A stretch of 33,925 bases of DNA. It comes from Chitinophagaceae bacterium. Lineage in GTDB: Bacteria; Bacteroidota; Bacteroidia; Chitinophagales; Chitinophagaceae. Shown one piece after another: positions 11,746-27,205 of the stretch. The first letter of the stretch is position 1; each line of letters starts with the position of its first letter. The position numbers were made by a program, and so were the translations under genes. A model generated the notes under the pieces. The model ran no database searches, was not told the DNA's origin, and was given only the letters and a program-made list of their open reading frames with translations. The DNA lies in contig JAHEZD010000049.1 of the NCBI GenBank assembly GCA_023251255.1, forward strand, positions 7,304 through 41,228, given 5' to 3'.

Positions 11746-14700
11746 ATGATGCAGCCCAGAACCATTGTGCTTATTGCTTTCTGCTGTTTGATGCTTAACC
11801 GTTCAAATGGGCAAATTTCATCTACCTATAATTTCAAGTTCAAAAACTATACGACCCAAAACGGGCTGGTGCACAATTTCACCAAGAAATGCAGGATGGA
11901 CAGTAAAGGCTTCCTCTGGATCATTACACAAAATGGCCTGAGCAGGTTTGATGGGGCAAACTTCAAAAATTTCCAGAACAACCTGGCCGACCCCACTTCA
12001 CTGCCTTACAATGATTTGACCGATATTGACATTGACAAATACGACAGGATATGGCTGGCCTATGGCAAGGGGCTTTGCTTCTTTGATCAAAGGAAGCATG
12101 AATTTGTTACCATCCATTCACCATTGAACACGGAAGCGGTTTCATTGGTGTATGATGCAAGAAGGGATATCATTTGGTACAATACCAATAAAGGCCTATT
12201 TAAAATCAATGCTGCCCAATTGGCTATTGCAGCAAGTAAACAACAAGCAGATTACAACCAAAGACCCTATACAACAACCATAGATACCAAAGGGCAAATA
12301 TGGACTGCTGTTGAACGCTTGGGCTACTATGTGTACAACATCAACAATGACACCTATAAATATTACAACTGCAATTGCTGGCCAAGAAGTTTTGATGAGG
12401 ATAACGAAGGCAATATGTGGATGAGTGGATGGCAATCAGGTTTGCAATTATTGAGCAATAATGATGTAAGTGGAAACACACAGGTATATGATGTACCACA
12501 TGAAAACAATTTTGATGGCACCATTTTCCAGAATATTGCCCAGTCTGTCGCATTAACTGGCAGTAATATACTTTGGGTTCTTACGCATACAGATGGTATT
12601 GACCTGTTTGATAAAAAAGAAAGAAAATTTGTGAAGCAGATAAAATACGATCCTGCTGCAAAGTCCGGCCTGCTCAGTAATTTCAGTACAAGTATATATG
12701 CAGATAAAAATGGCGTGGTTTGGGTCTGCAGTTGGCGTGGGCTATCCAAAATAAACAAGCAGGAGCAGCAGTTCCAATCTGCCGATATCCCTGCATTGGA
12801 AACAAACTTTTACAATTTACTGGCGGGGATAGAAGATGACCCTTACGATAAAAACATTTCCTGGATGGCTGTTCATGGTTCAGGGATTGTTAAGTACGAT
12901 AAAGCAAAAAACAAGATAGCCCAGCGTTACTTCTACATTTCCAATTCGCAACCAGTTGATGGATTCTATAACTGGCGCTGGGTATCATCCATACATCGGG
13001 ACCTTAAAAAAAGATTGTGGCTCCCTACTTATGGCGGCGCCATCTGCATTGATAAGGGCAAGGTGATAACAGTGCCTGCCAATTGGGACCTATCAGAAAG
13101 CTTTACCTATGATGGTAGCGTTTTGGAAGATGGGAATTTCTGGTCCTTCACCAAGAATGGCCTTGCAAAACTGAATACCGATACAAGGCAGTACACTTTT
13201 TATAAAAATAAAAAAGGCAACGAAGGAGATGTATTGGCCAACCATATTTATCAAGCAGTATTTATTGATTCCTCAACATTATTTTGTGGCACCGCAGATG
13301 GCTTGTACACTTTTGATTTGCCCCATCAAACCTTCAAAAAAATAGTCATCACCTTAAAAGATACCTCCAATGGCCAGTGGAAACGTTTTACTACAGTTCA
13401 AAAAATAAACAACAAGGTCTATTGCGGTGGGGAGTCTGGCCTGTTAGAATACGACCTAACAACACAGCAGTTTGAAGTAAAAGGCAAGGAGCAGGAAATT
13501 TTCAAACTTGAATTATGCTCACTGAAAAAAGATTCGCTGAACAAACTATGGATATATACGTTGCATGGGCTGTTCAGGTATGACCCGTTGAAGGACGAGT
13601 TCAAGAAATTCACCTCATCAGATGGCATCTATGACAACTCAACCGACCCCGTGCAGTTATTTGAGTACAATAGCAATATGTACATTGGCTACCGCATGGC
13701 CTATACCATGTTCAATCCACGTGAGGTGGATGCCAATAACAATAAGGTAAAGCCATACATAACTGAAATAAAGGTTAACAATCAACCGCAGAAGGTTCCA
13801 ATAGACAGTTTCAGTAATGCAGCACTCAATTTAAGCTATACGCAAAACAATATTGTTTTTGATTTTACGGGCATTGATTATACCACCAGTGAACGCATCA
13901 CCTTTGCACACAAACTGGAAGGTTTCGATAAGGATTGGGTATATGATGGCACCAGAAGAACGGCTACTTATTCCAACCTCAATGGCGACCATTATGTTTT
14001 CAAAGTGAAAGCCTGTAACAGCAGTGGCAAATGGAACAACGAGGAAGCTGTTTTCAAACTGTATATCCACCCACCCTTCTGGCAAAGATGGTGGTTCAAA
14101 TTATTGATAATGGCAGCCTTCGTTTCCACCGTTATTTTAATTGCAAGGAAAAGGGTCAACACCATCCGCAGCAAGGAAGAAGAAAAAACCTCCGTGAACA
14201 AAATGATGGCAGAATTGGAGATGAAGGCATTGAAAAGCCAGATGAATCCCCATTTTATTTTCAACTCACTCAACTCCATCCAGAAATACATCTGGGACAA
14301 CAAACAAGAAGATGCCAGTGAGTACCTGACCAAGTTTTCCAAATTGATCAGGATCATTCTCAACAATTCCATGCACAAACTGGTTACATTGGAAGACGAA
14401 CTCATTTCTTTGCAACTGTATATTGAACTGGAGCATAGGCGCTGCAATAACAAGTTCGATTATGAGATACATGTAAACAGTTCAATTGCCACCAATCAAG
14501 TGCTGGTGGCACCCATGCTCATGCAGCCCTATATTGAAAATGCCATTTGGCATGGATTGCTGCAGAAGGAAGACAGGGGGAAACTAAGCATCAACATTAC
14601 ACAGCCCAACAATTCCATCTTGGTATGTATAATAGAAGATAATGGCATTGGCAGGAAAAAAGCGGAGCAGTTGAAGAACAGGAAAGAAAACAAATCCGTA

Positions 14701-14859
14701 TCTTATGGTATGCAGATTACGCAGCAGCGGCTGGACCTATTGGAAACAGACGGCGCCATTGGCAGGGTAACAGTAGAAGACCTGATGGATGGCGACAAAC
14801 CTGCGGGCACGAGGATAATATTGGAAATACCGGTAGAAACTTTTCAAAAAATTGGCTAA
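11746..14859 (+). CDS. Propeller-type sensor histidine kinase (LytS-like HisKA domain)
   Basis: The 1037-residue product is an inner-membrane sensor. A signal peptide (MMQPRTIVLIAFCCLMLN...NGQ) is followed by about thirteen two-component-regulator-propeller repeats (for example DSKGFLWIITQNGLSRFDG and DKNGVVWVCSWRGLSKIN), enough for two seven-bladed propellers in the periplasm. A YYY-type beta domain (about 660-775) comes next, then one membrane helix near 784-802. The cytoplasmic His_kinase domain has the phospho-acceptor H836 in LKSQMNPHFIFNSLNS and an ATPase N-box in MQPYIENAIWHGLLQ. The stop codon overlaps the ATG of the LytTR regulator gene, so the two are translationally coupled partners. 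A TACATTTA box at 11733-11740 might be its promoter. In other Bacteroidetes such kinases often sense saccharides, but the ligand here is unknown. Confidence 0.93.
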   Translation: MMQPRTIVLIAFCCLMLNRSNGQISSTYNFKFKNYTTQNGLVHNFTKKCRMDSKGFLWIITQNGLSRFDGANFKNFQNNLADPTSLPYNDLTDIDIDKYDRIWLAYGKGLCFFDQRKHEFVTIHSPLNTEAVSLVYDARRDIIWYNTNKGLFKINAAQLAIAASKQQADYNQRPYTTTIDTKGQIWTAVERLGYYVYNINNDTYKYYNCNCWPRSFDEDNEGNMWMSGWQSGLQLLSNNDVSGNTQVYDVPHENNFDGTIFQNIAQSVALTGSNILWVLTHTDGIDLFDKKERKFVKQIKYDPAAKSGLLSNFSTSIYADKNGVVWVCSWRGLSKINKQEQQFQSADIPALETNFYNLLAGIEDDPYDKNISWMAVHGSGIVKYDKAKNKIAQRYFYISNSQPVDGFYNWRWVSSIHRDLKKRLWLPTYGGAICIDKGKVITVPANWDLSESFTYDGSVLEDGNFWSFTKNGLAKLNTDTRQYTFYKNKKGNEGDVLANHIYQAVFIDSSTLFCGTADGLYTFDLPHQTFKKIVITLKDTSNGQWKRFTTVQKINNKVYCGGESGLLEYDLTTQQFEVKGKEQEIFKLELCSLKKDSLNKLWIYTLHGLFRYDPLKDEFKKFTSSDGIYDNSTDPVQLFEYNSNMYIGYRMAYTMFNPREVDANNNKVKPYITEIKVNNQPQKVPIDSFSNAALNLSYTQNNIVFDFTGIDYTTSERITFAHKLEGFDKDWVYDGTRRTATYSNLNGDHYVFKVKACNSSGKWNNEEAVFKLYIHPPFWQRWWFKLLIMAAFVSTVILIARKRVNTIRSKEEEKTSVNKMMAELEMKALKSQMNPHFIFNSLNSIQKYIWDNKQEDASEYLTKFSKLIRIILNNSMHKLVTLEDELISLQLYIELEHRRCNNKFDYEIHVNSSIATNQVLVAPMLMQPYIENAIWHGLLQKEDRGKLSINITQPNNSILVCIIEDNGIGRKKAEQLKNRKENKSVSYGMQITQQRLDLLETDGAIGRVTVEDLMDGDKPAGTRIILEIPVETFQKIG

Positions 14860-15602
14860 TGCTTAAAGCAATCATCATTGACGACGAACAGAGCTGTGTG
14901 GAAACCCTGCAGTTGATGCTCACCAAAAAGTTTACGGCCCAAGTGGAAATTGTTGCCACCACCTCCACACCAAGTGAAGGCATTGCCCTGATCAATGAAC
15001 ATGAACCAGATATCCTTTTCCTGGATGTGGAGATGCCCGAGATGACCGGCATTGAACTGCTGCAATCACTACCGCATATTCATTTCAATGTAATATTCAC
15101 CACAGCACACCAACACTATGCACTGCAGGCCATCAAGCTGAATGCATTGGATTATTTAACTAAACCTATCTCTTTAGATGAGCTGACTGTGGCTGTAAAT
15201 AAATGTATCAGCAAGCAAAAGAAAGAAGACAACCTGCTCATCAACAATTTCCTGCACCAATTAAAAAGCAATGCGGTAAAAAAGATTGCCATACCCACAG
15301 GCACCACTACCCAATTTGTTCCAGTGAACGAAATTGTGAGGGTGGAATCTGCCAGTAATTACTCCATCATCTATTTCATCAACCGTCCCAAGCAAACCGT
15401 CACCAAGACCCTGAAGGACCTGGAGGAACAATTAACCCCGCACAACTTCTTACGTGTGCACCACTCCCATTTAGTGAATCTGGACCATGTAATCGGCTTC
15501 AAGAACCAGGACAGTGGCTATGTCATTGTACATGGCAATGAAGTCATAGAAATTTCCAGGAGGAAGAAGCAAGAAGTAATGGAAAGGCTGAATGCCATTT
15601 AG
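14859..15602 (+). CDS. LytTR-family response regulator
   Basis: This 247-residue cytoplasmic transcription factor has a receiver domain (1-120) with acidic residues D8/D9, phospho-acceptor D56 in DILFLDVEMPEMTG, the switch threonine in IFTTAHQHYA and the lysine in DYLTKPIS. A LytTR DNA-binding domain follows (about 140-245), with the usual IVRVESASNYSIIYF, FLRVHHSHLVNLDHV and EISRRKKQEV segments. It overlaps the kinase gene by 1 nt (TAATG), marking it as the cognate regulator. LytTR domains bind paired 9-bp direct repeats separated by 12-13 bp. Exactly such a pair begins 10 nt after this gene's stop codon, and a second lies before the operon at 18881. I infer that it controls both; the sequence shows no direct proof of binding. 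Confidence 0.94.
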   Translation: MLKAIIIDDEQSCVETLQLMLTKKFTAQVEIVATTSTPSEGIALINEHEPDILFLDVEMPEMTGIELLQSLPHIHFNVIFTTAHQHYALQAIKLNALDYLTKPISLDELTVAVNKCISKQKKEDNLLINNFLHQLKSNAVKKIAIPTGTTTQFVPVNEIVRVESASNYSIIYFINRPKQTVTKTLKDLEEQLTPHNFLRVHHSHLVNLDHVIGFKNQDSGYVIVHGNEVIEISRRKKQEVMERLNAI

Positions 15603-15605
15603 CTT

Positions 15606-15677
15606 TACCAGTTACTCAAATGATGTTGCCACTTACTCAAAAGAACCGATACAGGTTGGGATTGCTGGCTATGTTTA
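15606..15677 (+). promoter_or_regulatory. Putative LytTR operator and promoter, site A
   Basis: The direct repeats TTACTCAAA (15612-15620) and TTACTCAAA (15633-15641) have a 21-bp period (9-12-9). After a 28-nt gap (15642-15669) comes the box TATGTTTA (15670-15677), and the CocE start codon is 20 nt further on. The 36 bases 15606-15641 match 31 of 36 bases of site B (18788-18823), and the 28-nt gap is identical. The repeat period fits known LytTR sites. The lack of a good -33 TTG suggests an activator-dependent promoter. Confidence 0.7.
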
Positions 15678-15697
15678 TGCCTACAACCATCAACTAC

Positions 15698-17953
15698 ATG
15701 AAACAGCTACTTTTTGTAAGCCTGATTTTAATTGCCCTTCATTCCTCGGCGCAAAACTTCTACTTTTCCAAAGAAAACTATACAGATAGCGCAGCACTAG
15801 GCAAAGCCATGCCCATACTGGCAAAACAGCTAATCAGCAATAACAAAGAAAAAAACAGGCTCAGTTTCTTCTACAACCAGTTACGTTACCAAATTGTAGC
15901 GGAAGAATACAAAGCATCCATTGAATCACTGGATTCGTGCAAGGAAATAAACAAGTCACAAGGTGATGCAATAAAAGCCTTGCGTTTCCAATTTGAAACC
16001 TTTGCAGTAACCAAGGAACTGCAAAAAACAGATAACCGCCCCTTCGATAAATTGTACGTTAGCTGCTTCAATAAATTATATGCTGCCTTACCCGAGAAAG
16101 CAACCTTAACTGTGGATGATTATTTTTATGAAGAAGTTCCTGCCTTGTATAAAAAACTGAAAAAAGTACTGGATGATTGCCAACAAAAAAACAAGGACAG
16201 CATCGATTTGGATGATGCAAAGAAACTATGCCTGGCATACAGTTTCTACCATGTTTACAAGCATATAAAGCACTTAGCTGCACCATTACTGGAGCAAGCC
16301 ACCAACAGCAAGTACATCATTCAGGATAGTGTGCTCATTACCATGAAAGATGGGGGCCAGTTAACCGCTTGTATAGTAAGAAAGAAAAGCAATCCAGAAC
16401 CGCTGCCAGCCGTTATCATGTACAATATTTATGCAGATGGATTTGCAGTGCTAGATGCACGTGACATTGCCAATGAAGGGTTTGTAGGCATCATAGTCAA
16501 TACAAGGGGCAAGAAATTGAGCAAGCAGGCTATTGAACCTTTTGAACACGATGCCAATGATGCCTATGAAATGCTGGACTGGATAAGCAAGCAGCCTTGG
16601 TGCAATGGCAAGATAGGCATGTACGGTGGCAGCTATTTGGGTTTCGGACAATGGAGCGCAGTAAGGAAAATGCATCCAGCGTTGAAGACCATCGTACCGC
16701 AAGTAGCCGTTGCGCCCGGCATTGATTACCCCAATCCCAATGGTGTGTTCATGAGCTATATGCTCCGCTGGATACATTATGTAAGCAATAACAAACTAAG
16801 TGACTATGACGAGTTCGGCAACATGAGCAAATGGGACAGCGTCTTCAATAAATGGTATGTGACCGGTAAATCTTTCAGAAGCCTTGATAGCCTTGAAGGC
16901 AGGCCCAATGCTATTTTCCAACGGTGGTTGGCACATCCTGCTCACGATGGTTACTGGCAGAACATGGTGCCTTACCAAAAGGAATTTGCCAACATAAACA
17001 TACCCGTGCTAACAACCACTGGTTATTATGATGCCGATCAACGTGGCGCGTTCTATTACTTCAACCAGCACCACCAATACAACAAGAACGCCAACCATTA
17101 TTTATTGATAGGACCTTATGACCACGGTGGGGCACAACGGGCACCCAAGCCTGTACTGGAAGGCTACACCATTGATTCCGTTGCCAACATCAGTATCACC
17201 AACCTGGTATTCGAATGGTTCAACTATATTTTGAAGGACAGTGCAAAGCCTGCCATTTTAAAGGACAGGGTCAACTATGAAGTAATGGGCACCAATGAAT
17301 GGAAGCATGCACCATCGCTCAGCAAAATGAACAACGACACGTTAACTTTCTACCTGAGCAATGTGAAAAGCAAGACCTATTACCAGCTCCAGAACAAGAA
17401 GCCTGTTACCAATGAATATATTTCCCAGGAAATAAACCTTGCTGACAGGACCGATGCAAAGGATTATGCTGAAACCCTCATCTTGGATAGCGTTCTGAGA
17501 ATAAAGGAATTTGTTGCTTATGCAAGTGCGCCGCTGGAAAAAACAGTTACCATGAATGGATCTTTCCTTGCCGAAATAAATACCGTCATCAACAAGAAAG
17601 ACATGGACCTGACCGTGCAACTTTTTGAGCAGTTGCCCAATGGCCAATACTTTGCATTGGGCAATGATTATAACATAGTACGTGCCAGCTATGCAAAAAA
17701 CAGGAACCAACGGCAATTGCTGCAACCCGGCAAGCTGGAAAAAATATGCATGAACAATACCTATTTTGTTTGCAGGCAACTGAGCAAGGGCAGCCGCATC
17801 ATAGCATTGGTGGGCATCAATAAAAACAGGGACTGGCAAATTAACTATGGCACTGGAAAGGATGTAAGCGATGAAACAATAGCAGATGGCAAAATTCCGC
17901 TGCAGATAAAATGGATGAACAGCAGTTGCATCAAACTGCCCATTCAGCAGTAG
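15698..17953 (+). CDS. Secreted CocE/NonD-family serine hydrolase (X-Pro peptidase S15-like)
   Basis: The 751-residue product has a signal peptide (MKQLLFVSLILIALHSSAQN). An N-terminal helical region of about 180 residues is specific to this subgroup. The alpha/beta-hydrolase fold of the CocE/peptidase S15 class follows, with nucleophile S312 in MYGGSYLGFGQW, probable acid D445 in TTTGYYDADQRG and H476 in IGPYDHGGAQR, and last a C-terminal jelly-roll-like domain (from about 560). Known relatives release X-Pro dipeptides or hydrolyse esters and amides such as glutaryl-7-ACA; the substrate here is unknown. An in-frame ATG at 15620 would add 26 residues before the signal peptide and lies inside the operator region, so 15698 is the chosen start. 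No T9SS sorting domain is seen, so a periplasmic location is likely. It is transcribed from site A, just behind the LytTR regulator. Confidence 0.88.
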   Translation: MKQLLFVSLILIALHSSAQNFYFSKENYTDSAALGKAMPILAKQLISNNKEKNRLSFFYNQLRYQIVAEEYKASIESLDSCKEINKSQGDAIKALRFQFETFAVTKELQKTDNRPFDKLYVSCFNKLYAALPEKATLTVDDYFYEEVPALYKKLKKVLDDCQQKNKDSIDLDDAKKLCLAYSFYHVYKHIKHLAAPLLEQATNSKYIIQDSVLITMKDGGQLTACIVRKKSNPEPLPAVIMYNIYADGFAVLDARDIANEGFVGIIVNTRGKKLSKQAIEPFEHDANDAYEMLDWISKQPWCNGKIGMYGGSYLGFGQWSAVRKMHPALKTIVPQVAVAPGIDYPNPNGVFMSYMLRWIHYVSNNKLSDYDEFGNMSKWDSVFNKWYVTGKSFRSLDSLEGRPNAIFQRWLAHPAHDGYWQNMVPYQKEFANINIPVLTTTGYYDADQRGAFYYFNQHHQYNKNANHYLLIGPYDHGGAQRAPKPVLEGYTIDSVANISITNLVFEWFNYILKDSAKPAILKDRVNYEVMGTNEWKHAPSLSKMNNDTLTFYLSNVKSKTYYQLQNKKPVTNEYISQEINLADRTDAKDYAETLILDSVLRIKEFVAYASAPLEKTVTMNGSFLAEINTVINKKDMDLTVQLFEQLPNGQYFALGNDYNIVRASYAKNRNQRQLLQPGKLEKICMNNTYFVCRQLSKGSRIIALVGINKNRDWQINYGTGKDVSDETIADGKIPLQIKWMNSSCIKLPIQQ

Positions 17954-18191
17954 TCACGCTATTTCTGCAACAATACACTGAGCTACAAATACACCTGTAA
18001 ACCAAGAGAATTTGAGGCAGAGGAAAAGTACTTTATGCACGGTTCCAACGATTCCCTTCAAAACAAAAAATACATTAAAAGGCAAAACCAACAGCCTATC
18101 AGCCCTGCCAAAAGCCACAGATTTCCGAATTAAGTTAATTCATCACCATCCCCACGTACATTATTGGGCAATCTAAAAAAATGCTCAATCG
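17954..18191. other. Non-coding start of the 927-bp intergenic region
   Basis: This stretch lies between the CocE stop codon and the structured repeats. I see no gene, no clear terminator hairpin with a T-tract and no promoter box. The only symmetrical item is a short AATTAAGTTAATT palindrome near 18128. The whole gap to 18880 is non-coding, and its remaining parts are listed separately. Confidence 0.5.
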
Positions 18192-18218
18192 TTTACCAGC
18201 AAAGGGTTTTCTGGTAAA
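18192..18218. repeat. Stem-loop TTTACCAG / CTGGTAAA
   Basis: Perfect 8-bp arms (18192-18199 and 18211-18218) surround an 11-nt loop, 14 nt before the half-site array. It could be an isolated operator or a weak terminator for the CocE transcript; no U-tract follows on the plus strand. Confidence 0.4.
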
Positions 18219-18232
18219 AATATCCGTAAAGC

Positions 18233-18348
18233 TGTAGCAAAAAATAAAGGCAGATTTAAATTGCTACAAAAGTGTAGCAATTTAAATTCAGCTTTTTATT
18301 TTGTTACACTTCTGTAACAATTTGATTTTCACTTTTTATTTTGCTACA
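18233..18348. repeat. Regular array of inverted half-sites: three 36-bp units, 40-bp period
   Basis: Half-site TGTAGCAA (or TGTAACAA) begins at 18233, 18273 and 18313; its inverse TTGCTACA (or TTGTTACA) begins at 18261, 18301 and 18341. The spacing alternates 28, 12, 28, 12, 28. This gives three 36-bp units with 8-bp inverted ends (18233-18268, 18273-18308, 18313-18348) joined by 4-nt linkers (AAAG, CTTC). The 20-nt interiors are AT-rich; those of units 2 and 3 resemble each other, and that of unit 1 resembles them only when reverse-complemented. Viewed the other way, the array holds two full palindromes, TTGCTACA-N4-TGTAGCAA (18261-18280) and TTGTTACA-N4-TGTAACAA (18301-18320), flanked by single half-sites. 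It may be a multi-site operator or a small tandemly inserted palindromic element. Confidence 0.8.
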
Positions 18349-18416
18349 AATGCAATGCTCCTATAAAGACCAGTATTGATACCCATGCAGAAAAAGTTGG
18401 GAGTATTTTTTAGGAG

Positions 18417-18505
18417 CTGTCGAAATTCATTTCAATGGTTAATACCTGCCGATTTTCGGCTGTCCCGCATTTTACGGGCTTGGATTTTCGCCTCAGGCTT
18501 TACGG
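18417..18505. repeat. Degenerate copy of the interspersed palindromic element
   Basis: The sequence carries GAGCTGTCGAAA near the start and TCGCCTCAGGCTTTAC near the end, which match the GAGCCTGTCGAAA and CGCCTTCG...CCTCAGGCTTGAC parts of the copy at 30411-30536. Between them are two short hairpins, GCCGATTTTCGGC and CCCGCATTTTACGGG. It looks like an older, rearranged copy. Confidence 0.4.
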
Positions 18506-18544
18506 TTGGCATAATAGTCATCCATACCGCACAGTAAGTTTGTT

Positions 18545-18740
18545 GGTAGTGCATCATTTTGAATATCTTTCTTGCAAATAAATGTCAGCCTGGTCATAGT
18601 GAGCTTGACGAACTACTGTCGAAGGCGTTTTCCATCGCAATGCTAATCGGTTTCAACAGGCTTGCCTACCGGCAGGCAGGCTCAACCCCGATAAGAAATC
18701 GGGGCAGGCTGTGACAAGAAATTCAAACTGATGCACTGCC
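18545..18740. repeat. Interspersed palindromic element, copy 3 (inverted)
   Basis: A 196-bp element has 20-bp imperfect terminal inverted repeats (18545-18564 against 18721-18740, 18 of 20 pairing). Its core, read on the minus strand, matches copy 1: CCTGCCCCGATT...ATCGGGG, then GTTGAGCCTG, CCTGCCGG and finally AGGCTGACATTTA. The outer arms differ from those of copy 1 yet are complementary to each other. It ends 47 nt before site B. Confidence 0.65.
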
Positions 18741-18787
18741 AGTTTATTGGATTGAAAACGGATACTCACCATAATCCCTACTGCGGT

Positions 18788-18859
18788 TACCACTTACTCA
18801 AATCATCCTGCCACTTTCTCAAAGTCTATTGCCGTAGCAGCAGGCAGTAACTAGGTTTA
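18788..18859 (+). promoter_or_regulatory. Putative LytTR operator and promoter, site B
   Basis: The direct repeats TTACTCAAA (18794-18802) and TTTCTCAAA (18815-18823) have a 21-bp period. They are followed by a 28-nt gap (18824-18851) and the box TAGGTTTA (18852-18859). The start codon of the first operon gene is 21 nt further on. The layout copies site A base for base in spacing, while the 28-nt gap itself differs in sequence. That points to selection for the protein-to-polymerase distance. Confidence 0.7.
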
Positions 18860-18880: not shown

Positions 18881-19114
18881 ATGACGGAAGCCGCTAACAT
18901 CACTATCCAGCCCAATGCACAACTGAATGTTTTCATCAAATTAATTGATGAACTAAAAGCTCCATTTGCAACCATCATTACCAACAATGGTGAAGCAGTG
19001 GAACACCTGATACTACAGCAAGGAAACAATACCATCAATATAACACCATACCTGTATAAGAACTACGCCATCCGCGTGGTGAACGGTAAAAACGTAACTG
19101 TACAAAAGATATGA
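18881..19114 (+). CDS. Small stand-alone T9SS sorting-domain-like protein
   Basis: The 77-residue product has no signal peptide. Its sequence (PNAQLNVFIKLIDEL, then ATIITNNGEAVEHLILQQG, NNTINITPYLY and YAIRVVNGKNVTVQKI) follows the strand pattern of T9SS type A C-terminal sorting domains, in which a tail such as L..G.Y.VKV.NGK...QKI closes large secreted proteins. Here that domain stands alone. An in-frame TAA four codons upstream excludes a longer protein, and AAGGA lies 5 nt before the ATG. The stop overlaps the next gene's start (ATGA), so translation is coupled to the barrel gene. It is the first gene behind site B. It could be a cytoplasmic regulator or chaperone-like partner, or a beta-sandwich of other origin; the function is unknown. 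Confidence 0.65.
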   Translation: MTEAANITIQPNAQLNVFIKLIDELKAPFATIITNNGEAVEHLILQQGNNTINITPYLYKNYAIRVVNGKNVTVQKI

Positions 19115-20796
19115 GACGATTACTTCCATACGCCTTCGCGTTATTGCTGCTGCACCAAACTGCATCGGCACAGGATATCGAACAAAGCACCAAACAGAGC
19201 CCGGTAAGCATCAACGGCAGCATAGACCTGCGTGGCATTGCTTACTCCGTCACTGGTATACCCGAAAGGAGGAAACCATTCTCCTATATACTTTGTGGCA
19301 ATACCAACCTGGTACTCTATGGGCTGGAAATACCATTGAGCTTTGTGGTAAGCGAACAGGACAGGAACTTCAGCCAGCCATTCAACCAGTTTGGTTTGAG
19401 CCCAAAGTACAAATGGCTGACACTTCATGCGGGTTACAGGAACCTCAGCTTCTCACCTTATACCCTGGATGGTTACACCATGCTTGGTGCAGGCATTGAA
19501 ATAAAGCCAAAGGGGTTCCAACTATGTGCCATGTATGGCAGGATGAACAGGGCCACAGCCATTGATACCACATTGGGTACCCTGCAGCCGTTCAGTTTTT
19601 CCAGGACCGGCCTTGCCATTAAGCTCGGTGTCGGTGACGAAAAAAACAACTTCATCATCAGCGTGCTCCGTGCGAAGGATGATAGTTCAAGTGTAGGTAT
19701 CATTGATCCCGTAACCAAGCAGCTTGTACGCCCGGCCGCTAACACGGTGGGTTCAGCAGCATTCAGGAACCAGTTTGGCAAGCACCTCTTTGTGGAAGCT
19801 GATGCGGGTGCCAGCTTATGGACCAATGATATTGGCAGCACTTATGCCGTAACGGATTCCACCAACCAATGGGTGGATAAAATAAGGAAAATAATGCCGG
19901 TGAACGGCACCACCGAATTTTATTATGCCTACAGGGCGGCAACTGGTTTTACCAGCAATGCCTTTTCCTTGAAATTTGAATACAAGTATGTGGACCCGCA
20001 GTTCAGGAGCATGGGCGTTTATTATTTCAACAACGACATAAAGAGTTACACGGTTTCACCTTCATTCAATTTATTCAAGAACAGGTTCAGGTTAAGCGGC
20101 AGCATTGGCAAACAGGATGACAATGTACGTGACCAGAAGGAAGCCACCACCAGCAGGACCATTGGTATGGCCAACCTTAGCTGGGACATTACACAACAGT
20201 TTGGGGTAGATGCGGGCTTCACCAACTTTTCTTCCAACTCAAAACCAACAGTGGTGCTTGTTCAGAACAAATATTTGTTGGCCCAAAGCAATAGCAATAT
20301 ATCCTTTACACCAAGGTATGTATTTGCCAACAGCAGGCATTCGCATGTGGTAATTGCGTCCTATAATCGTTCTTCTTTGGTAGATGACAATTCAATAACA
20401 CAAACAGTCAACAACATCACCACGGAAATCATCTTGCTCAACTATACTTATACTATGGTTAAAAGAGCGCTTAGTATAACTGGTGCAATCAACAGGGCAA
20501 CCAATGAACTGGTCACTGGCAAGTTTGAGAACATGAGCTACACTTTGGCACTGAACAAAAACTGGTTCAAGGGCAAGCTCATTGCAGCATTGAACAATAC
20601 TTACACAACAAGCAAAGGGCCATTGGGAGAAACGGGCATCTACAATTTAATGGTCAATGCAAACTATCAACCATCTAGGCATCACCGTTTCAATTTACGT
20701 TATACTTTATTGAACAACAAACCAGAAAACGCAAGCAACACACAAATAAAATTTGCAGAAAATACCACCGAGATCGGTTACACCTTAAGTTTCTAA
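19111..20796 (+). CDS. Outer-membrane beta-barrel protein of unknown function
   Basis: The 561-residue product has a signal peptide (MRRLLPYAFALLLLHQTASAQ). From about residue 35 to the end it consists of alternating amphipathic strands, ending in the aromatic TTEIGYTLSF typical of outer-membrane barrels. A conserved-looking N-terminal stretch reads FSQPFNQFGLSPKYKWLTLHAG. There is no TonB box and no plug domain, so it is not a TonB-dependent receptor. It overlaps the preceding small gene by 4 nt and is followed after 10 nt by the giant TANFOR-like gene. A likely role is an outer-membrane anchor or export pore for the two large secreted proteins of the operon, but that is inference from gene order only. 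Confidence 0.8.
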   Translation: MRRLLPYAFALLLLHQTASAQDIEQSTKQSPVSINGSIDLRGIAYSVTGIPERRKPFSYILCGNTNLVLYGLEIPLSFVVSEQDRNFSQPFNQFGLSPKYKWLTLHAGYRNLSFSPYTLDGYTMLGAGIEIKPKGFQLCAMYGRMNRATAIDTTLGTLQPFSFSRTGLAIKLGVGDEKNNFIISVLRAKDDSSSVGIIDPVTKQLVRPAANTVGSAAFRNQFGKHLFVEADAGASLWTNDIGSTYAVTDSTNQWVDKIRKIMPVNGTTEFYYAYRAATGFTSNAFSLKFEYKYVDPQFRSMGVYYFNNDIKSYTVSPSFNLFKNRFRLSGSIGKQDDNVRDQKEATTSRTIGMANLSWDITQQFGVDAGFTNFSSNSKPTVVLVQNKYLLAQSNSNISFTPRYVFANSRHSHVVIASYNRSSLVDDNSITQTVNNITTEIILLNYTYTMVKRALSITGAINRATNELVTGKFENMSYTLALNKNWFKGKLIAALNNTYTTSKGPLGETGIYNLMVNANYQPSRHHRFNLRYTLLNNKPENASNTQIKFAENTTEIGYTLSF

Positions 20797-20806
20797 ACAC
20801 ATCATT

Positions 20807-23800
20807 ATGAAAAGAAAATTACTACCATTTTTACTGCTCATGCTGCTGGCCTATGCACACACATTGCAGGCACAGGTAACCGTTACCACCAACATTGCAC
20901 CACCTTACTCCAGCAAGTTGAGCGACTATGCCAGTACACCGGGCAAAGTGTTCATTACGCTTACCAATACTTCGCCCAGTGGCAGCATGAAAGTGTACTT
21001 GCGTGCAACAATAACCGGCACCAACAACAACGTAAAGATTGCTACCAAATCAAATTTCCGCCCTACTCAGCCATTGATTTTGCAGGCTGGCATCCCTTAC
21101 ATGGTAGACCTTCAAACACTCACCACTTTATTTGATGTGAATTCATTTGACCTGCAGAACATTACCGCTTCCCAGATATTCTTAAAGAATGGCTTGCCAG
21201 AAGGTGATTACAGTTTCTGTGTAAGGGCGTACAATTTTGATTTGCCCACACTGCCAGTTTCATCAGGCAGTCCATTTGGCTGTACCAATGTCAGGCTTAC
21301 GCAATTGGAGCCGCCCATACTCATCAAGCCCTTTGACAAGGAAACAAAATTTTCCAACAGCAATACCAATGTGCAGAACATCATTTTCAATTGGGGCATA
21401 CCAGCAGGTGCTGAACCAGGGACGCAATATGTTTTGAGGATCATTGAAATGCTTGACCCGAGCAAGAACCCCAATGATGCCATGAACTCCAAAACAACAC
21501 CTGCTTTTTTTGAAACAACGACTTCAGCAAATATTGTTCTGTATGGCCCTGCCCAACCAGCATTGGTAGAAGGGAGGAAATATGCTTGGGCAGTAACTGC
21601 ATTGCCTGGTATACAGGGCACAGCTTACAAGAACAATGGCAGAAGTGAAGTAAGAAGTTTTACTTACAATCAGCCTCCATTGCCGCCACCTCCCCCTCCA
21701 AAACCTGCCAACTTGGTACAGTTGACTTATCCAGCCAATAACGAAATCGTAAAACCATATTTGGATACATTTTTCTTTACCCCACAAAAGAAAACATACC
21801 TAACATGGGATTTTGATAAAAGCATTAATGCATCCAATCAGCAAGTAATTGTTGTACTTATAAAAAATGGGCAAACCCCAGAACAGGCCATTAAGAGCAA
21901 CCCGAACGTGATATCAACCAAAGAACCTTCAAAATCTGCTTTTTTTGATGTAGGTATATACGAGGGAGAAAAACTAGCTTGGCAAGTAAATATTACTGAT
22001 GTCAAAGGCAAACTTTATTCTAGTGACGTTCAAACTTTTTCCGTTACACCTGCAAGCGTTACACTCATTTATCCAAAAGATAAAGATTTTGTACCCGATG
22101 CTGTCATTCATTTTCAATGGGTAAATAGTGCATCGCTTTATAAAGGTCAGAATGGAAAGGAATATGTACTTACACAAAAACCAACTATCGTTGAAATCAA
22201 AAAGGGACAAACGCCTGCCGATGCCATAAAGCAAAACACCAATCTTTATACGAATGGAGAACAAGGCTGGAACCTAACTGATATAGACCTTAGTGCCTAC
22301 TCAGGTAAACGCATGGCATGGAAGGCAGAATCATGGAGGGACGGAAAATCGGCCACTAGCAGCATCGACACTTTTACAGTAATCGATTTTGACAAATCAC
22401 TTAAAAATTTCACTACTTTCAATCTATGTGGTTATCCAATCACTGTAACTTCTATCAGCAATACGCAAGGCTTTAATTATAAAGGCACAGGTACAACTAC
22501 ATTGTATAAAAACGGCCCTATTGTGCAGGTTGCTTTTAGCGAACTAACCATCCAGCCATTTGGTTCAGTAAAAAACAATAGTGGAAAGGTAACAGCCTAT
22601 ACTGATTGGAAAGCTACGATGGTATTGGATTCCGTGAAGGCAGTCAATTTCAAGAAACAAAGCATCAATCTTAGTATCATACAAAAAAACATATCCGGCA
22701 GCTTTACTTTTGAAGCAAGCAAGCTTGTGTTTGCGCCTTCCATTATAACTCATTGGGACAACACTGAAGGACATTTTATTGATGTAGTAAAATTCATCAA
22801 TCCCAACCTTACAGATGCTGACTATGCACCAAATATTGTTGGTAAATTCAAATGGGTTTCAGAGTTTCTCAATAAGGATGACAAAGGTGCAATCAAGATG
22901 GCAGAATTCACTTCCCAAGATGACCAGACCTTCAAATTTGATTACAATCAAAAGATTCCAGCAGGTACAGAAAGTGGATCGCTCATATTGAATGGTGATG
23001 TAACTGTTTTGCTAAAACCAGCCATGCAAGCAAATACAGAAATAGCGTTGAGTGCATTCTTGAAAATGGACAAGAACCTGCAAGCAAACTTTACTATGGC
23101 TGGCTGGTACAAAATAATTTGCCCAGCCGATTCAAAGAAAACTATTAATGTAGATTTCTACGATAAATCAGAAATGGAATTTGACAGGTCTTATGATGCA
23201 GGTTGGAACATCGCTCTAAATAAAGATGCATCCTGCAATGCCTTGTTTAATACAGTTCATTTGAATTTATCAAACAATCCAAACAAGATATTTGGTATAA
23301 CCATTCCCCAAATGAAAGTGGTAATCAATGACCACTCCAACCTTAAGCAGCATCCTGAATTTATTTTTACCTCAGTTCCTGTTAACGGAACAGATGGCAT
23401 CAAACTAAATGAAAGCAGGAACATTGCAGCAGCAAATCAGAACATACAGTTCTATGGTTTTGATTTAATACTGAAAAAAATCACCTGCAACATCAACAAG
23501 TCGGAACTAGCACAGTTTAAAATGGAAGGCAGCTATACCATTCCTTTCATCAATCAAAAATCCACCTATACATTTATCATTGACAAGAACAGTCTCGGTA
23601 ACGCAAACCTGTCGTTTGACAATGTACAGACCAACACCTTATATAACGATCCTGACAAAGGCGACAAGTGCACATTCAAACCAACATTTGCCTCCATGGA
23701 GTTTACAAAAATTGCACTGAACGGCAATTTCAATTTTAGCAATAAAGTAGCAGGTAAACACCTGAATGTATCAGGCATTGCTTCACCCAAATTTGCTATT

Positions 23801-25216
23801 AGTCCGGATGGAATATTATCCATGTATGATGCTTATTCACCTGATATGGGAAATACAGCAACCAATCCTGCTGGTGATTTCAATGGCTTCAAATTCACGC
23901 CATACAAAATGACCATGGGCAAGTACCTTACTCAGTCAACTTATGTTTTAAAACTCAGTGGCATCATGGTTTTGGCAGATAACTTCTCTTCCAAGAACAG
24001 CACCAACAATTTCACTACAGAAGTAACATTTGATGCCAATACAATTACTACAGGCGGGGTTGCTTACAGCAGGAAGGATTTTGCCACTTTCAAGGAATAC
24101 CATCATTATATAAAAGGCCTGGATAATAAATCCGTTTCATTTACATCCCAAGCAGATGCGGGGAGCGACAATGAATCTTCTTCTTTCACAGGTGCCAAGC
24201 TCACCTACTACGATAGTGACGGTACTTACGGCACTGGCTTCAAGGCAGAGCTGGGCTTCAGCTTAAAGTCGCCTGTAGACCCCACACAGCCCACCCAAAG
24301 CGTTAATGCCATTTTGTGGGTGGGGCATAAACAAGAAGGCTATAATTATTGGTTCCTGGAGGCTGGGCAAAAGAATGTGGTTACCATTCAGACAGGTATT
24401 CTTGACCTCGCCATTAATGGCTTCAAAGGAAGGATTTTCTACCACATGCGGCATGATGGGGACAATATCAACAATTCAAAATACTATCCAGATAATAGCA
24501 AGTTCATGGGTGTGTATGCACAGGTAAACCTGATAACATCCACAGATAAAGGCATTAAGTTCTGGGGTGATGTTGCCATGGAGGTGCTCACCAATAACAG
24601 TGGTCTGGAAAGTATCAAATTGTTGGGTAACGGAACGTTCATCAGTCAAGGTGAAGGAACAGATGGCATCATAAAGGCCAAGGACTGCAAGTTGAATTTA
24701 TACTGGAGCCCAAAGAAAGCCACTGGTGATTTTAATGTGGAGCTGAATGCAGCTTCCCAAATAACCATTAGTGCAAATGCTGGTTTTGAAATTGGTGATG
24801 GCATATTCCATATTTGGGGCAGTGGCTCGGGCAGTATGTTTGGCCAACCTGCACCTGCAACATGCGGTTTTGATCTGGACAAGGAACAAATCAGGGTATA
24901 TGGTGACTTTAAAATGATTGACATCAACTGGCATAACGGGGGCCTTTTCTGTGATGATGATATTGTGGTGAACTCCGGTGTAAAAATGGATGCATCCTTC
25001 CACTACAAACCTTTCCAATTTACAGGTAGTGGCACATTCTATGGCAATGCCAAAGTGCAGGAATGTGGTGTAACCGTTTTCTCCATTGGCTTGAGTTTAA
25101 ATGCCCAGCTTCAATTTCCAAGCCCGACTTGTGTTAGTGCAGGGCTCTCCATTTTTGGTTTTGACTTTGATGCAGGTATAAGAAACGGGGGACTCATTTT
25201 TGAAAAATGCTTTTAA
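20807..25216 (+). CDS. Giant secreted TANFOR-like surface protein
   Basis: The 1469-residue product has a signal peptide (MKRKLLPFLLLMLLAYAHTLQAQ). Residues of about 24-175 fit the TANFOR domain described in Bacteroidetes (IAPPYSSKLSDYAS, FITLTNTSPSGSMKVYLRAT, GLPEGDYSFCVRAYNF, then PPIL). Three related beta modules follow, with the signatures KNPNDAMNSKTTPAF (~218), GQTPEQAIKSNPNV (~354) and GQTPADAIKQNTNLY (~466), plus a poly-proline linker PPLPPPPPPKP near 289. The rest (about 540-1469) is beta-rich, contains few cysteines, and ends GLIFEKCF with no T9SS sorting domain. It is the third gene of the operon, 10 nt after the barrel gene and 9 nt before the FnIII gene. It is probably surface-exposed or periplasmic and structural or adhesive. 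The TANFOR name is from memory of the family pattern; the function is unknown. Confidence 0.72.
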   Translation: MKRKLLPFLLLMLLAYAHTLQAQVTVTTNIAPPYSSKLSDYASTPGKVFITLTNTSPSGSMKVYLRATITGTNNNVKIATKSNFRPTQPLILQAGIPYMVDLQTLTTLFDVNSFDLQNITASQIFLKNGLPEGDYSFCVRAYNFDLPTLPVSSGSPFGCTNVRLTQLEPPILIKPFDKETKFSNSNTNVQNIIFNWGIPAGAEPGTQYVLRIIEMLDPSKNPNDAMNSKTTPAFFETTTSANIVLYGPAQPALVEGRKYAWAVTALPGIQGTAYKNNGRSEVRSFTYNQPPLPPPPPPKPANLVQLTYPANNEIVKPYLDTFFFTPQKKTYLTWDFDKSINASNQQVIVVLIKNGQTPEQAIKSNPNVISTKEPSKSAFFDVGIYEGEKLAWQVNITDVKGKLYSSDVQTFSVTPASVTLIYPKDKDFVPDAVIHFQWVNSASLYKGQNGKEYVLTQKPTIVEIKKGQTPADAIKQNTNLYTNGEQGWNLTDIDLSAYSGKRMAWKAESWRDGKSATSSIDTFTVIDFDKSLKNFTTFNLCGYPITVTSISNTQGFNYKGTGTTTLYKNGPIVQVAFSELTIQPFGSVKNNSGKVTAYTDWKATMVLDSVKAVNFKKQSINLSIIQKNISGSFTFEASKLVFAPSIITHWDNTEGHFIDVVKFINPNLTDADYAPNIVGKFKWVSEFLNKDDKGAIKMAEFTSQDDQTFKFDYNQKIPAGTESGSLILNGDVTVLLKPAMQANTEIALSAFLKMDKNLQANFTMAGWYKIICPADSKKTINVDFYDKSEMEFDRSYDAGWNIALNKDASCNALFNTVHLNLSNNPNKIFGITIPQMKVVINDHSNLKQHPEFIFTSVPVNGTDGIKLNESRNIAAANQNIQFYGFDLILKKITCNINKSELAQFKMEGSYTIPFINQKSTYTFIIDKNSLGNANLSFDNVQTNTLYNDPDKGDKCTFKPTFASMEFTKIALNGNFNFSNKVAGKHLNVSGIASPKFAISPDGILSMYDAYSPDMGNTATNPAGDFNGFKFTPYKMTMGKYLTQSTYVLKLSGIMVLADNFSSKNSTNNFTTEVTFDANTITTGGVAYSRKDFATFKEYHHYIKGLDNKSVSFTSQADAGSDNESSSFTGAKLTYYDSDGTYGTGFKAELGFSLKSPVDPTQPTQSVNAILWVGHKQEGYNYWFLEAGQKNVVTIQTGILDLAINGFKGRIFYHMRHDGDNINNSKYYPDNSKFMGVYAQVNLITSTDKGIKFWGDVAMEVLTNNSGLESIKLLGNGTFISQGEGTDGIIKAKDCKLNLYWSPKKATGDFNVELNAASQITISANAGFEIGDGIFHIWGSGSGSMFGQPAPATCGFDLDKEQIRVYGDFKMIDINWHNGGLFCDDDIVVNSGVKMDASFHYKPFQFTGSGTFYGNAKVQECGVTVFSIGLSLNAQLQFPSPTCVSAGLSIFGFDFDAGIRNGGLIFEKCF

Positions 25217-25225
25217 ACAACAACA

Positions 25226-27205
25226 ATGAAAAAGATAATAAACATACTTGTACTAACCGCAGCCATTAATTGCAGTTGCATTGGACTGAATGCACAAAGC
25301 TTGAAATTGGCTGCCAGTGCATCTACTGATAAAACCTCACAAAAAATGACAGTGAAGATGAAATTCATTGACACCGTAAACGTGGTGAGCCAATACCGTA
25401 TCAATGTATTTAGAAGGGAAAGCAATGGCAATTGGGTTAAATTGACCGCTGAGCCAATTACAAAAACAATAGTGGCTGCTGGTGAAAACTACAGTGACAA
25501 AGACCAGAGCTTTAAACGCTATGCAAACTTTATGTTGCGTAAGCCCAATACCGACAAGGAAAAGAACCTCAAAGGTTTTGCTGGCTTGATGTTGTTGAAC
25601 GATAATAAAATGGCAGAGTATGCAGGTTGCTATTTTGAAGACAACACTGTTACGGCAGGTAAGATCTATGAATACAAATTAGCTGATGCAGATAAAAACG
25701 ATGCTGATATTTCTACCCCCATAAAGGTCAGTACATCTACGAATGCACAAATAGCAGTAAGTGGCTTGAGTTTCATGCAGCAGGATCAAAATATTTTATT
25801 GAACTGGAAAAAGGAAGAACAGCATTATGCTTATAAAGTTTATAGAAAATCATCTTCTACGGCAACGCCTACATTGGTAACAACAAAACCATTGCTTCCA
25901 GCCACCGTTAAAGGAGAAGTGGCCAATGCTTTCAAGTATGCCGATACAGGATTAAAAGCAGGGAGCACTTATTATTACCAAGTAGCAGCAATGGATATAC
26001 TCAACAATGAAACTGCGTTAAGTGAGCCCTTGAAAATAACAGTGAAAGATTTGACGCTCCCCAAAGTTGTGACCAACCTTATCAATGAAAGGAAGAAGAA
26101 AACTTTTGAACTGAGATGGCAGGCAACAAAAGACAAGAACTGCACTGGCTACAATGTTTACAGGAACAGTGAGGCAGATGTTTCGTTCAAAAAAATAAAC
26201 AAGCAACTGTTGGTTCCTACAGCAACTAGTTTCATTGACAGTAACGTTGCAGAAAAAAATGCTTATGCCTATTATGTTGAAAGCATTAGTCCAGCAGGAG
26301 TGAAAGCAAATAGCATCGTTACAAAAGCTGTGATGCCAGACGTTACACCGCCAGCCAAACCAAGCGGTGTAAGGGGCATATCAGCCCCAGGCATGACCCA
26401 TATTACCTGGAATGCCAACAAGGAAAATGATGTAAAGGGTTACTGGGTTTACCGCTCCACCAATAAAAGCAAGGATTACTTCAACCTAGTTACTGAAAAA
26501 CCGGTTACCTCCACTTCGTTTACGGATTCATTACCAGTTACCTCCAAGAACGATTACGTTTACCGTATCCAGGCTATTGATGAAAGCTACAATAAAAGTG
26601 AAATGAGCGATACAGTTATCTTATTGCTGCCCGATGTTACTGCTCCACTGCCTGTACAAATGGTAGATGCTTCATTAACGGAGAAAGCTGTTACTGTTTC
26701 ATGGCAGAAAGCCGCCGATGAAGATGTGGTAGGTTATGATGTGTTCCGCTCGGTGGAAGGCCCAACTGAAAAGTATGAGCAATTGAACAAGCAACCGTTA
26801 ACACAATTGAATTTTGTGGACAGGGACAGCCTGCACCAAGGCAGTACCATTACTTATTACATAACAGCCATGGACAGGAGCAACAATAAATCTATGCCAT
26901 CAAAACCAGCTTTGATTGTGGTTCCCATTGATTCAGCTTCTATGAAACCAGTTGAGAACCTGACCATCTCCAAAAATGAAAAGGACAGCAGTGCCAATAT
27001 AACATGGCGCAGCGGTGCACAGAATGTAAGTGGCTATATTGTTTTCCGCAAAAGCAGTAGCCAGGATAATTTTGTGGCCATCTCCCCCCTTCTTTCCAGC
27101 AGCAGTTTCAAAGATGAAAATGTGGTAACTGGTGAAACCTATGAATATTATGTGCGTACCTACTTCTCCAATAACAGTTTCAAGAACTCAATAGCGGGCA
27201 AATAA
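25226..27205 (+). CDS. Secreted protein with five fibronectin type III modules
   Basis: The 659-residue product has a signal peptide (MKKIINILVLTAAINCSCIGLNAQ) and an N-terminal domain to about residue 175 that is itself beta-rich. Five FnIII-like modules then begin near residues 179, 278, 375, 474 and 573, a period of 97-99. Each shows the pattern W...(V/N)xGYxVYR(S/N) ... YYYxVxAxDxxxNxS, for example DVKGYWVYRS and DVVGYDVFRS. No sorting domain, enzyme motif or membrane helix is seen at the C-terminus (SFKNSIAGK). It is the last gene of the operon that begins at 18881 and is followed at once by a terminator. A rod-like extracellular partner of the TANFOR-like protein is a reasonable inference. 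Confidence 0.85.
   Translation: MKKIINILVLTAAINCSCIGLNAQSLKLAASASTDKTSQKMTVKMKFIDTVNVVSQYRINVFRRESNGNWVKLTAEPITKTIVAAGENYSDKDQSFKRYANFMLRKPNTDKEKNLKGFAGLMLLNDNKMAEYAGCYFEDNTVTAGKIYEYKLADADKNDADISTPIKVSTSTNAQIAVSGLSFMQQDQNILLNWKKEEQHYAYKVYRKSSSTATPTLVTTKPLLPATVKGEVANAFKYADTGLKAGSTYYYQVAAMDILNNETALSEPLKITVKDLTLPKVVTNLINERKKKTFELRWQATKDKNCTGYNVYRNSEADVSFKKINKQLLVPTATSFIDSNVAEKNAYAYYVESISPAGVKANSIVTKAVMPDVTPPAKPSGVRGISAPGMTHITWNANKENDVKGYWVYRSTNKSKDYFNLVTEKPVTSTSFTDSLPVTSKNDYVYRIQAIDESYNKSEMSDTVILLLPDVTAPLPVQMVDASLTEKAVTVSWQKAADEDVVGYDVFRSVEGPTEKYEQLNKQPLTQLNFVDRDSLHQGSTITYYITAMDRSNNKSMPSKPALIVVPIDSASMKPVENLTISKNEKDSSANITWRSGAQNVSGYIVFRKSSSQDNFVAISPLLSSSSFKDENVVTGETYEYYVRTYFSNNSFKNSIAGK

What the first reader, a model, noticed from the sequence alone, without database searches (positions are those of the whole stretch)
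15606..18859. Two promoters share a LytTR-type direct-repeat operator with identical 28-nt spacing to the -7 box
Seen: TTACTCAAA/TTACTCAAA (15612, 15633) and TTACTCAAA/TTTCTCAAA (18794, 18815) both have a 21-bp period. Both are followed by exactly 28 nt and then TATGTTTA or TAGGTTTA, and both sit 20-21 nt before the start codon. The operator blocks match at 31 of 36 bases while the 28-nt gaps do not resemble each other, so the spacing rather than the sequence is kept. Known: LytTR domains bind two 9-bp direct repeats separated by 12-13 bp. The LytTR regulator gene (14859-15602) ends 9 nt before the first repeat. Inference: the local kinase and regulator activate both the CocE hydrolase and the 18881-27205 operon. 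I found no third site in the window.
Basis: partly seen in the sequence, partly recalled or inferred. Interest (0 to 1): 0.82.

Follow-up and report, generated by a model that had tools for sequence, protein, structure and literature searches.

The report
Paired LytTR operator at two promoters
Two promoters in a Chitinophagaceae bacterium carry the same standard docking site for the neighbouring regulator at a fixed distance from the start signal; relatives keep the site before one operon, and a gene found here but not in the nearest relative has its own copy.

Summary
Both sites read as canonical LytTR operators. Many published LytTR promoters have their -10 at 32-33 nt (PMC6193735, passages; my sum of their columns).

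Six of 394 family genomes hold an orthologue of the regulator at 59% identity or more. All six carry such an operator 33 or 32 nt before a TAnnTTT box, upstream of a 70-84-codon ORF: 7 promoters, plus the window's CocE promoter. In one genome that ORF lies beyond the kinase; another has a second copy on a different contig. So the operator follows the target gene, not the regulator's 3' end.

In the nearest relative one operator sits right behind the regulator and serves the small-ORF/barrel/TANFOR operon, without CocE. CocE looks like a lineage-specific arrival with a second operator. Binding, activation and transcription starts are untested. New member of a known kind; the shared 32-33-nt geometry and a solitary T9SS-tail-like first gene are the interesting parts.

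The parts
11746..14859 (+). Sensor histidine kinase: Reg_prop, Y_Y_Y and His_kinase (PF06580) domains
   Evidence: 74% identical in G001
14859..15602 (+). REC-LytTR response regulator
   Evidence: orthologues 59-87% in 5 other genomes
15607..15641 (+). Operator 1: ACCAGTTAC 15607-15615 and GCCACTTAC 15628-15636, each followed by TCAAA
15670..15677 (+). -7-like box TATGTTTA of the CocE promoter, 33 nt after the second 9-mer
15698..17953 (+). CocE/NonD family hydrolase (Peptidase_S15, PepX_C), N-terminus looks like a signal peptide by eye
   Evidence: no match in G001
17954..18788 (.). Non-coding stretch with dispersed repeats of this genome
18789..18823 (+). Operator 2: ACCACTTAC 18789-18797 and GCCACTTTC 18810-18818, each followed by TCAAA
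   Evidence: half-sites 28 of 28 identical in G001
18852..18859 (+). -7-like box TAGGTTTA of the operon promoter, 33 nt after the second 9-mer
   Evidence: 8 of 8 identical in G001
18881..19114 (+). 77-aa free-standing T9SS-tail-like protein, first gene of the operon
19111..20796 (+). 561-aa barrel-like protein of unknown family; start overlaps the previous stop (ATGA)
20807..25216 (+). 1469-aa TANFOR-like protein (below the family's cut-off)
25226..27205 (+). 659-aa Fn3 protein

Best explanation
The two sites are LytTR operators. The neighbouring propeller-type histidine kinase would phosphorylate the LytTR regulator, which would bind the two half-sites 21 bp apart, on one face of the helix, and help RNA polymerase at the -7 box 32-33 nt downstream. 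It would switch on (a) the small-ORF/barrel/TANFOR/Fn3 operon, the target shared with relatives, and (b) in this lineage also a CocE-type hydrolase whose promoter has a near-copy of the operator at the same distance. Shown: the sites, their conservation, spacing, and co-occurrence with the regulator and the small ORF. Inferred: phosphorelay, binding, positive control, transcription starts, and that operator 1 arose by duplication when the CocE segment arrived.
For: The regulator has REC and LytTR domains. Half-sites and the 12-bp spacer equal entries of a published LytTR table. Six of 6 genomes with an orthologue of 59% or more carry the operator before the small ORF: 7 such promoters plus CocE, box at 33 nt in 6 of 8 and 32 nt in 2 of 8. 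Scored with a consensus from the two window sites alone, the 6 promoters of other genomes reach 21-28 of 28; 2,000 shuffles each reached the score 0, 0, 1, 0, 0 and 0 times, and period 21 was the best of periods 14-28 in all 6. In all DNA then held (1.17 Mb counting both strands, with overlapping loci) 58 places score 20 or more; each one with a TAnnTTT box at 24-32 nt is one of these 8 promoters. G412, where no operator stands behind the regulator, was a test: its small ORF lies beyond the kinase and carries the operator. G005 has a second target set on another contig. Operator 2 against G001: half-sites 28 of 28, linker 3 of 7, spacer 16 of 28, box 8 of 8.
Against: No binding or expression data. 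Only 2 of 8 boxes are a perfect TAnnTTTG; 5 are TAnnTTTA and G142 has TAATTTTT with its ATG 74 nt away. In G412 the box overlaps the first ATG of the ORF, so a later start must be assumed (a GTG 20 nt after the box, by my reading). The genome has 24 LytTR genes, so another could bind. The orthologue search scored only 6 candidates a genome. Operator 2 and G001's operator are orthologous, and operators 1 and 2 are related, so the 8 promoters are not all independent.
Confidence: 0.85

Rival explanations
1. The operators are real LytTR sites but the local regulator represses there, or a different one of the genome's LytTR proteins uses them.
For: 24 LytTR genes in the genome. A site beside another LytTR gene (L070) has a related half-site at an equivalent distance by eye.
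Against: Regulator orthologue and free-standing small ORF occur in the same 6 of 394 genomes, each time with the operator. The operator lies upstream of the box, where published LytTR activators sit.
Confidence: 0.1
2. Only the operon site works; the CocE site is an inert remnant of the event that inserted CocE at the operator.
For: Operator 1 stands where the relative's only operator stands, directly behind the regulator; CocE control is seen in one genome only.
Against: Operator 1 keeps 26 of 28 half-site bases while the linker has 4 of 7 and the spacer 4 of 28 in common with operator 2, and a TAnnTTTA box stands at the same 33 nt and 20 nt from the ATG although the spacers are unlike.
Confidence: 0.15
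3. Chance repeats without function.
For: Weak matches (2-3 mismatches) are as common as in the reversed control.
Against: 0 of 100 window shuffles gave two matches; conservation in six genomes.
Confidence: 0.01

Closest known systems
LytTR-family direct repeats of Streptococcus mutans HdrR/BrsR and other LytTR Regulatory Systems (PMC6193735; passages and Tables 2-3 as shown by two find calls, 58 and 62)
   Same: Half-sites such as ACCACTTAC-12 bp-ACCACTTAC just upstream of the promoter; in many entries 10 + 6 + 16 or 17 bp puts the -10 at 32-33 nt from the repeat, as here (my sum)
   Different: Partner here is a histidine kinase, not a membrane inhibitor; no operator before the kinase/regulator genes; box of Bacteroidota type. 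Not all entries fit: BrsR sums to 31, SMU_294 to 27, and the two Bacteroides entries use 11-mers, an 11-bp spacer and 34 bp
SilA of streptococci (PMC2766830, abstract and passages)
   Same: LytTR regulator, two repeats with 11-bp spacer (10-bp repeats, period 21), exact repeat spacing needed for activity
   Different: Peptide-quorum system of Firmicutes
VirR regulon (PMC2838878, passages)
   Same: Two direct repeats in a fixed place and helical phase relative to the promoter; regulon gains and losses of targets
   Different: Different repeat, 7-8 nt apart as defined there, upstream of a -35
BtsR-type response regulators
   Same: Best NCBIfam match of the regulator by E-value (135.5 bits)
   Different: Far below that model's cut-off of 246

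Membership tests
LytTR-type response regulator with direct-repeat operator | Receiver plus LytTR DNA-binding domain | tested here: met
   PF00072 81.3 bits and PF04397 59 bits, both above cut-off
LytTR-type response regulator with direct-repeat operator | Two 9-bp repeats separated by 11-13 bp, ACCACTTAC-like | tested here: met
   9-12-9 in 8 of 8 promoters; list
LytTR-type response regulator with direct-repeat operator | Regulator binds the repeats | not testable with these tools
   needs gel shift or footprint
LytTR Regulatory System (LRS) | Regulator paired with an inhibitory membrane protein | tested here: not met
   the neighbour is a histidine kinase and the regulator has a receiver domain
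LytTR Regulatory System (LRS) | Repeats upstream of its own operon (autoregulation) | tested here: not met
   only two sites in the window at up to 3 mismatches, none before 11746
Bacteroidota sigma-A promoter | -7 box TAnnTTTG | tested here: inconclusive
   perfect in 2 of 8, TAnnTTTA in 5, TAATTTTT in 1
Bacteroidota sigma-A promoter | -33 element | not tested
   no count was made
CocE/NonD hydrolase | TIGR00976 above cut-off | tested here: met
   182.1 bits, cut-off 66.3
TANFOR protein | TIGR02542 above cut-off at the N-terminus | tested here: inconclusive
   residues 22-143, E 9.4e-14, 51.6 bits, cut-off 67
T9SS C-terminal sorting domain (Por_Secre_tail) | C-terminal position on a larger protein | tested here: not met
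   free-standing 77-aa ORF
T9SS C-terminal sorting domain (Por_Secre_tail) | Sequence match to PF18962 | tested here: inconclusive
   window protein no match; 2 of 5 members match weakly, best E 0.025; the profile of the five finds C-terminal tails of long ORFs (20 of 20 read), and 5 of 5 tails tested match PF18962

The most novel reading that the evidence does not exclude
LytTR activation geometry is held across phyla: the second half-site ends 32-33 nt before the promoter's TA, whether the promoter is a Firmicutes -35/-10 pair or a Bacteroidota -7 box. LytTR regulons of Bacteroidota would then be predictable from sequence, and a newly arrived gene (CocE) joined the regulon by gaining an operator copy at exactly that distance although the rest of its promoter is unrelated.
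Probability: 0.35. Interest if true: 0.6.

Novelty: new member of a known kind. Interest (0 to 1): 0.45.

Why it matters
This genome alone has 24 LytTR genes. My searches of the held library (listings only, none of those hits opened) brought up no operator for such a regulator in Chitinophagaceae; the one Bacteroidota example I saw is the two Bacteroides entries of PMC6193735. A defined operator at a fixed distance from the -7 box gives a testable way to assign targets, ties this kinase to a TANFOR operon, and offers a case of a gene joining a regulon through an operator copy.

Tried and rejected
Invariant 28-nt gap: rejected; 2 of 8 promoters have 27 in that register. One search had listed several registers for G005:C134; the one consistent with the others gives 27.

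A rule for all LytTR genes: not shown. Among 23 other LytTR loci of this genome a blind scan found one site, L070. Among 78 LytTR loci of other organisms there was no excess at period 21 (4 of 31 cells, all from two near-identical loci, against 7 at period 16 and 6 at period 27), and a second scan of 101 loci gave 2 at period 21 among 9 over periods 15-27. Period counts were noisy (14 at period 21, 32 at period 14, both strands counted) and are not used.

Family-wide pattern, 33-nt gap: 2 matches in 2 of 294 genomes, 0 in the reversed control. With a free gap of 20-46 nt: 8 matches in 7 of 294 genomes against 11 in the reversed control, so no overall excess; 3 of the 8 lie at 32-33 nt (about 0.6 expected, binomial P 0.017). 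Of these three, one is right behind another HK-LytTR pair; two have no LytTR match in their 3-kb locus. None of the six orthologue promoters of other genomes could be re-found by these two scans (not in the sample or not fitting the strict pattern), so they are fresh but few.

Genus scan of the repeat pair at up to 1 mismatch (10 genomes): 5 places in 4 genomes against 6 in the reversed control; only the window's two and the G001 place lie at this locus.

Repeats before the barrel genes L045 and L046: not kept between the two; rejected. L057 (G224) looks LytTR-like with TACATTCA at an equivalent distance by eye; left open. CocE relatives: none of the 11 other loci showed this operator among the period 20-22 repeats of the 600 bp before the gene. 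Fold search of the 77-aa model: no PDB match at E 0.001 or better.
Full report
Observation. The pair of repeats is found twice in the window, 0.09 expected, and nowhere else in the 6.1-Mb genome at 0-1 mismatch. The two blocks align over 37 bp with 5 mismatches, while the following 28 nt match at 4 positions.

Proteins. The upstream pair is a propeller-type sensor kinase (His_kinase, Y_Y_Y, Reg_prop) and a REC-LytTR regulator. Downstream of site 1 is a CocE/NonD hydrolase. Downstream of site 2 are a 77-aa ORF, a 561-aa barrel-like protein without a Pfam or NCBIfam match, a 1469-aa TANFOR-like protein and an Fn3 protein. The first two overlap by ATGA.

Register. The published half-site is ACCACTTAC-like, the spacer mostly 12 bp, and the repeats most often stand 10 bp before the -35 (PMC6193735, passages and tables). 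In the canonical register the box begins 33 nt after the repeat. Adding the published columns (10 + 6 + 16 or 17) gives 32-33 nt to the -10 for many entries; that sum is mine. Not all fit: BrsR sums to 31, SMU_294 to 27, and the two Bacteroides entries use 11-mers, an 11-bp spacer and 34 bp to TATCTTTG.

Orthologues. Searching 394 family genomes for the regulator gave 11 genomes at E 1e-62 or better; six including the own one have 59-100% identity, after which identity falls to 47% and below; at most 6 candidates were scored in a genome. In five of the six, including the own genome, the operator stands within about 40 nt behind the regulator gene; in G412 no period 20-22 repeat was found there. 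The small ORF as a free-standing gene (open frame of 90 aa or less) occurs in the same six genomes of 394, seven copies. In G412 the small ORF is beyond the kinase, and the operator stands before it, box TATGTTTA at 33 nt. In G005 a second small-ORF/barrel/TANFOR set lies on another contig; it has its own operator, box at 32 nt, and the genome's only regulator match at E 1e-62 is elsewhere. So the site follows the target. From contig length and place, G001 is Chitinophagaceae bacterium UBA1930 and G075 is isolate 337R_metabinner_11; the window's genome is in G001's genus.

Statistics. With a consensus taken only from the two window sites, the other promoters score G001 28, G075 24, G142 23, G005 22 and 21, G412 21 of 28. 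Of 2,000 dinucleotide shuffles each, one (for the G005 second copy) or none reached the score, and period 21 was the best of periods 14-28 in all six. G001's site and operator 2 are orthologous, and operators 1 and 2 are related, so these are not eight independent cases.

Weak points among the eight. Two boxes are perfect TAnnTTTG, five TAnnTTTA, one TAATTTTT. In G142 the ATG is 74 nt from the box. In G412 the box overlaps the first ATG; a GTG 20 nt after the box is a possible start (my reading).

Origin of the second site. In G001 the operator and the promoter of the small ORF stand immediately behind the regulator, with no CocE between. The window's operator 2, spacer (16 of 28) and box (8 of 8) match that promoter, whereas operator 1 stands where G001's operator stands relative to the regulator gene. 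CocE relatives at E 1e-30 or better occur in 8 of 147 other genomes searched, not in G001. The stretch after CocE holds dispersed repeats: 45 further matches in the genome, some of them within the stretch itself, only 40 of 195 candidates scored. A segment with CocE has most likely been inserted at the operator, which is now present twice; how is not resolved. Two of 11 other CocE loci also lie directly behind other LytTR genes, without this operator.

Beyond this group of regulators. A different LytTR locus of the same genome (L070) has CATCACTTA repeats with 21-bp period and TAGGTTTG, and two near-identical loci from other families (L183, L193) have repeats with TACTTTTG, all at an equivalent distance by my alignment of the half-sites. 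A family-wide pattern found one further HK-LytTR locus with an exact 33-nt site (L220). Against this, blind scans showed no general excess at period 21, and the free-gap scan had 8 matches against 11 in its control, although 3 of the 8 fell at 32-33 nt. The wide rule is a lead, not a result.

Small ORF. Besides the 7 free-standing copies its profile matched 31 places; loci were given for 24, of which 4 at contig edges were skipped, and in 20 of 20 the match ends within 20 residues of the stop of a longer ORF. Five of 5 tails tested are Por_Secre_tail. The window protein itself has no Pfam match at E 1. The model (three sequences, mean pLDDT 77.5, strands only) found no solved relative at E 0.001. 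It is a free-standing T9SS-tail-like protein of unknown role. TANFOR genes are reported to be linked with T9SS tails and Fn3 proteins, and many TANFOR proteins to carry toxin domains (PMC7073777, start of abstract and passages); no toxin domain was recognised in the window's protein.

Verdict. Known in kind, well supported as a LytTR operator pair: the shared target is the TANFOR operon, and the second target is a hydrolase gene missing from the nearest relative.

Noticed in passing
window 18881-19114: Free-standing 77-aa protein resembling a T9SS C-terminal sorting domain, first gene of the operon, found in the same six genomes as the regulator orthologue.
   Followed up: partly
L220 1501-1571 (G298): LytTR-type operator with TACTTTTG at 33 nt directly behind another HK-LytTR pair; no ORF follows on that strand nearby, but by eye a hairpin and T-run come within about 100 nt: perhaps a small RNA.
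   Followed up: no
L090 and L095: CocE-type hydrolases directly downstream of other HK-LytTR pairs (regulators 32-34% identical), without this operator.
   Followed up: partly
L070, reverse strand, about 1984-2060 (genome contig C92): Another LytTR locus of this genome with CATCACTTA repeats at 21-bp period and TAGGTTTG, before a gene for a protein with a signal-peptide-like start.
   Followed up: partly
L224, about 1500-1569 after reversing (G318): Near-perfect ACCAAATACTCAT repeats at 21-bp period with TATATTTG at 32 nt; no LytTR match in the 3-kb locus and no clear ORF after it.
   Followed up: no
window 17954-18788: Stretch made in large part of repeats dispersed over the genome.
   Followed up: no
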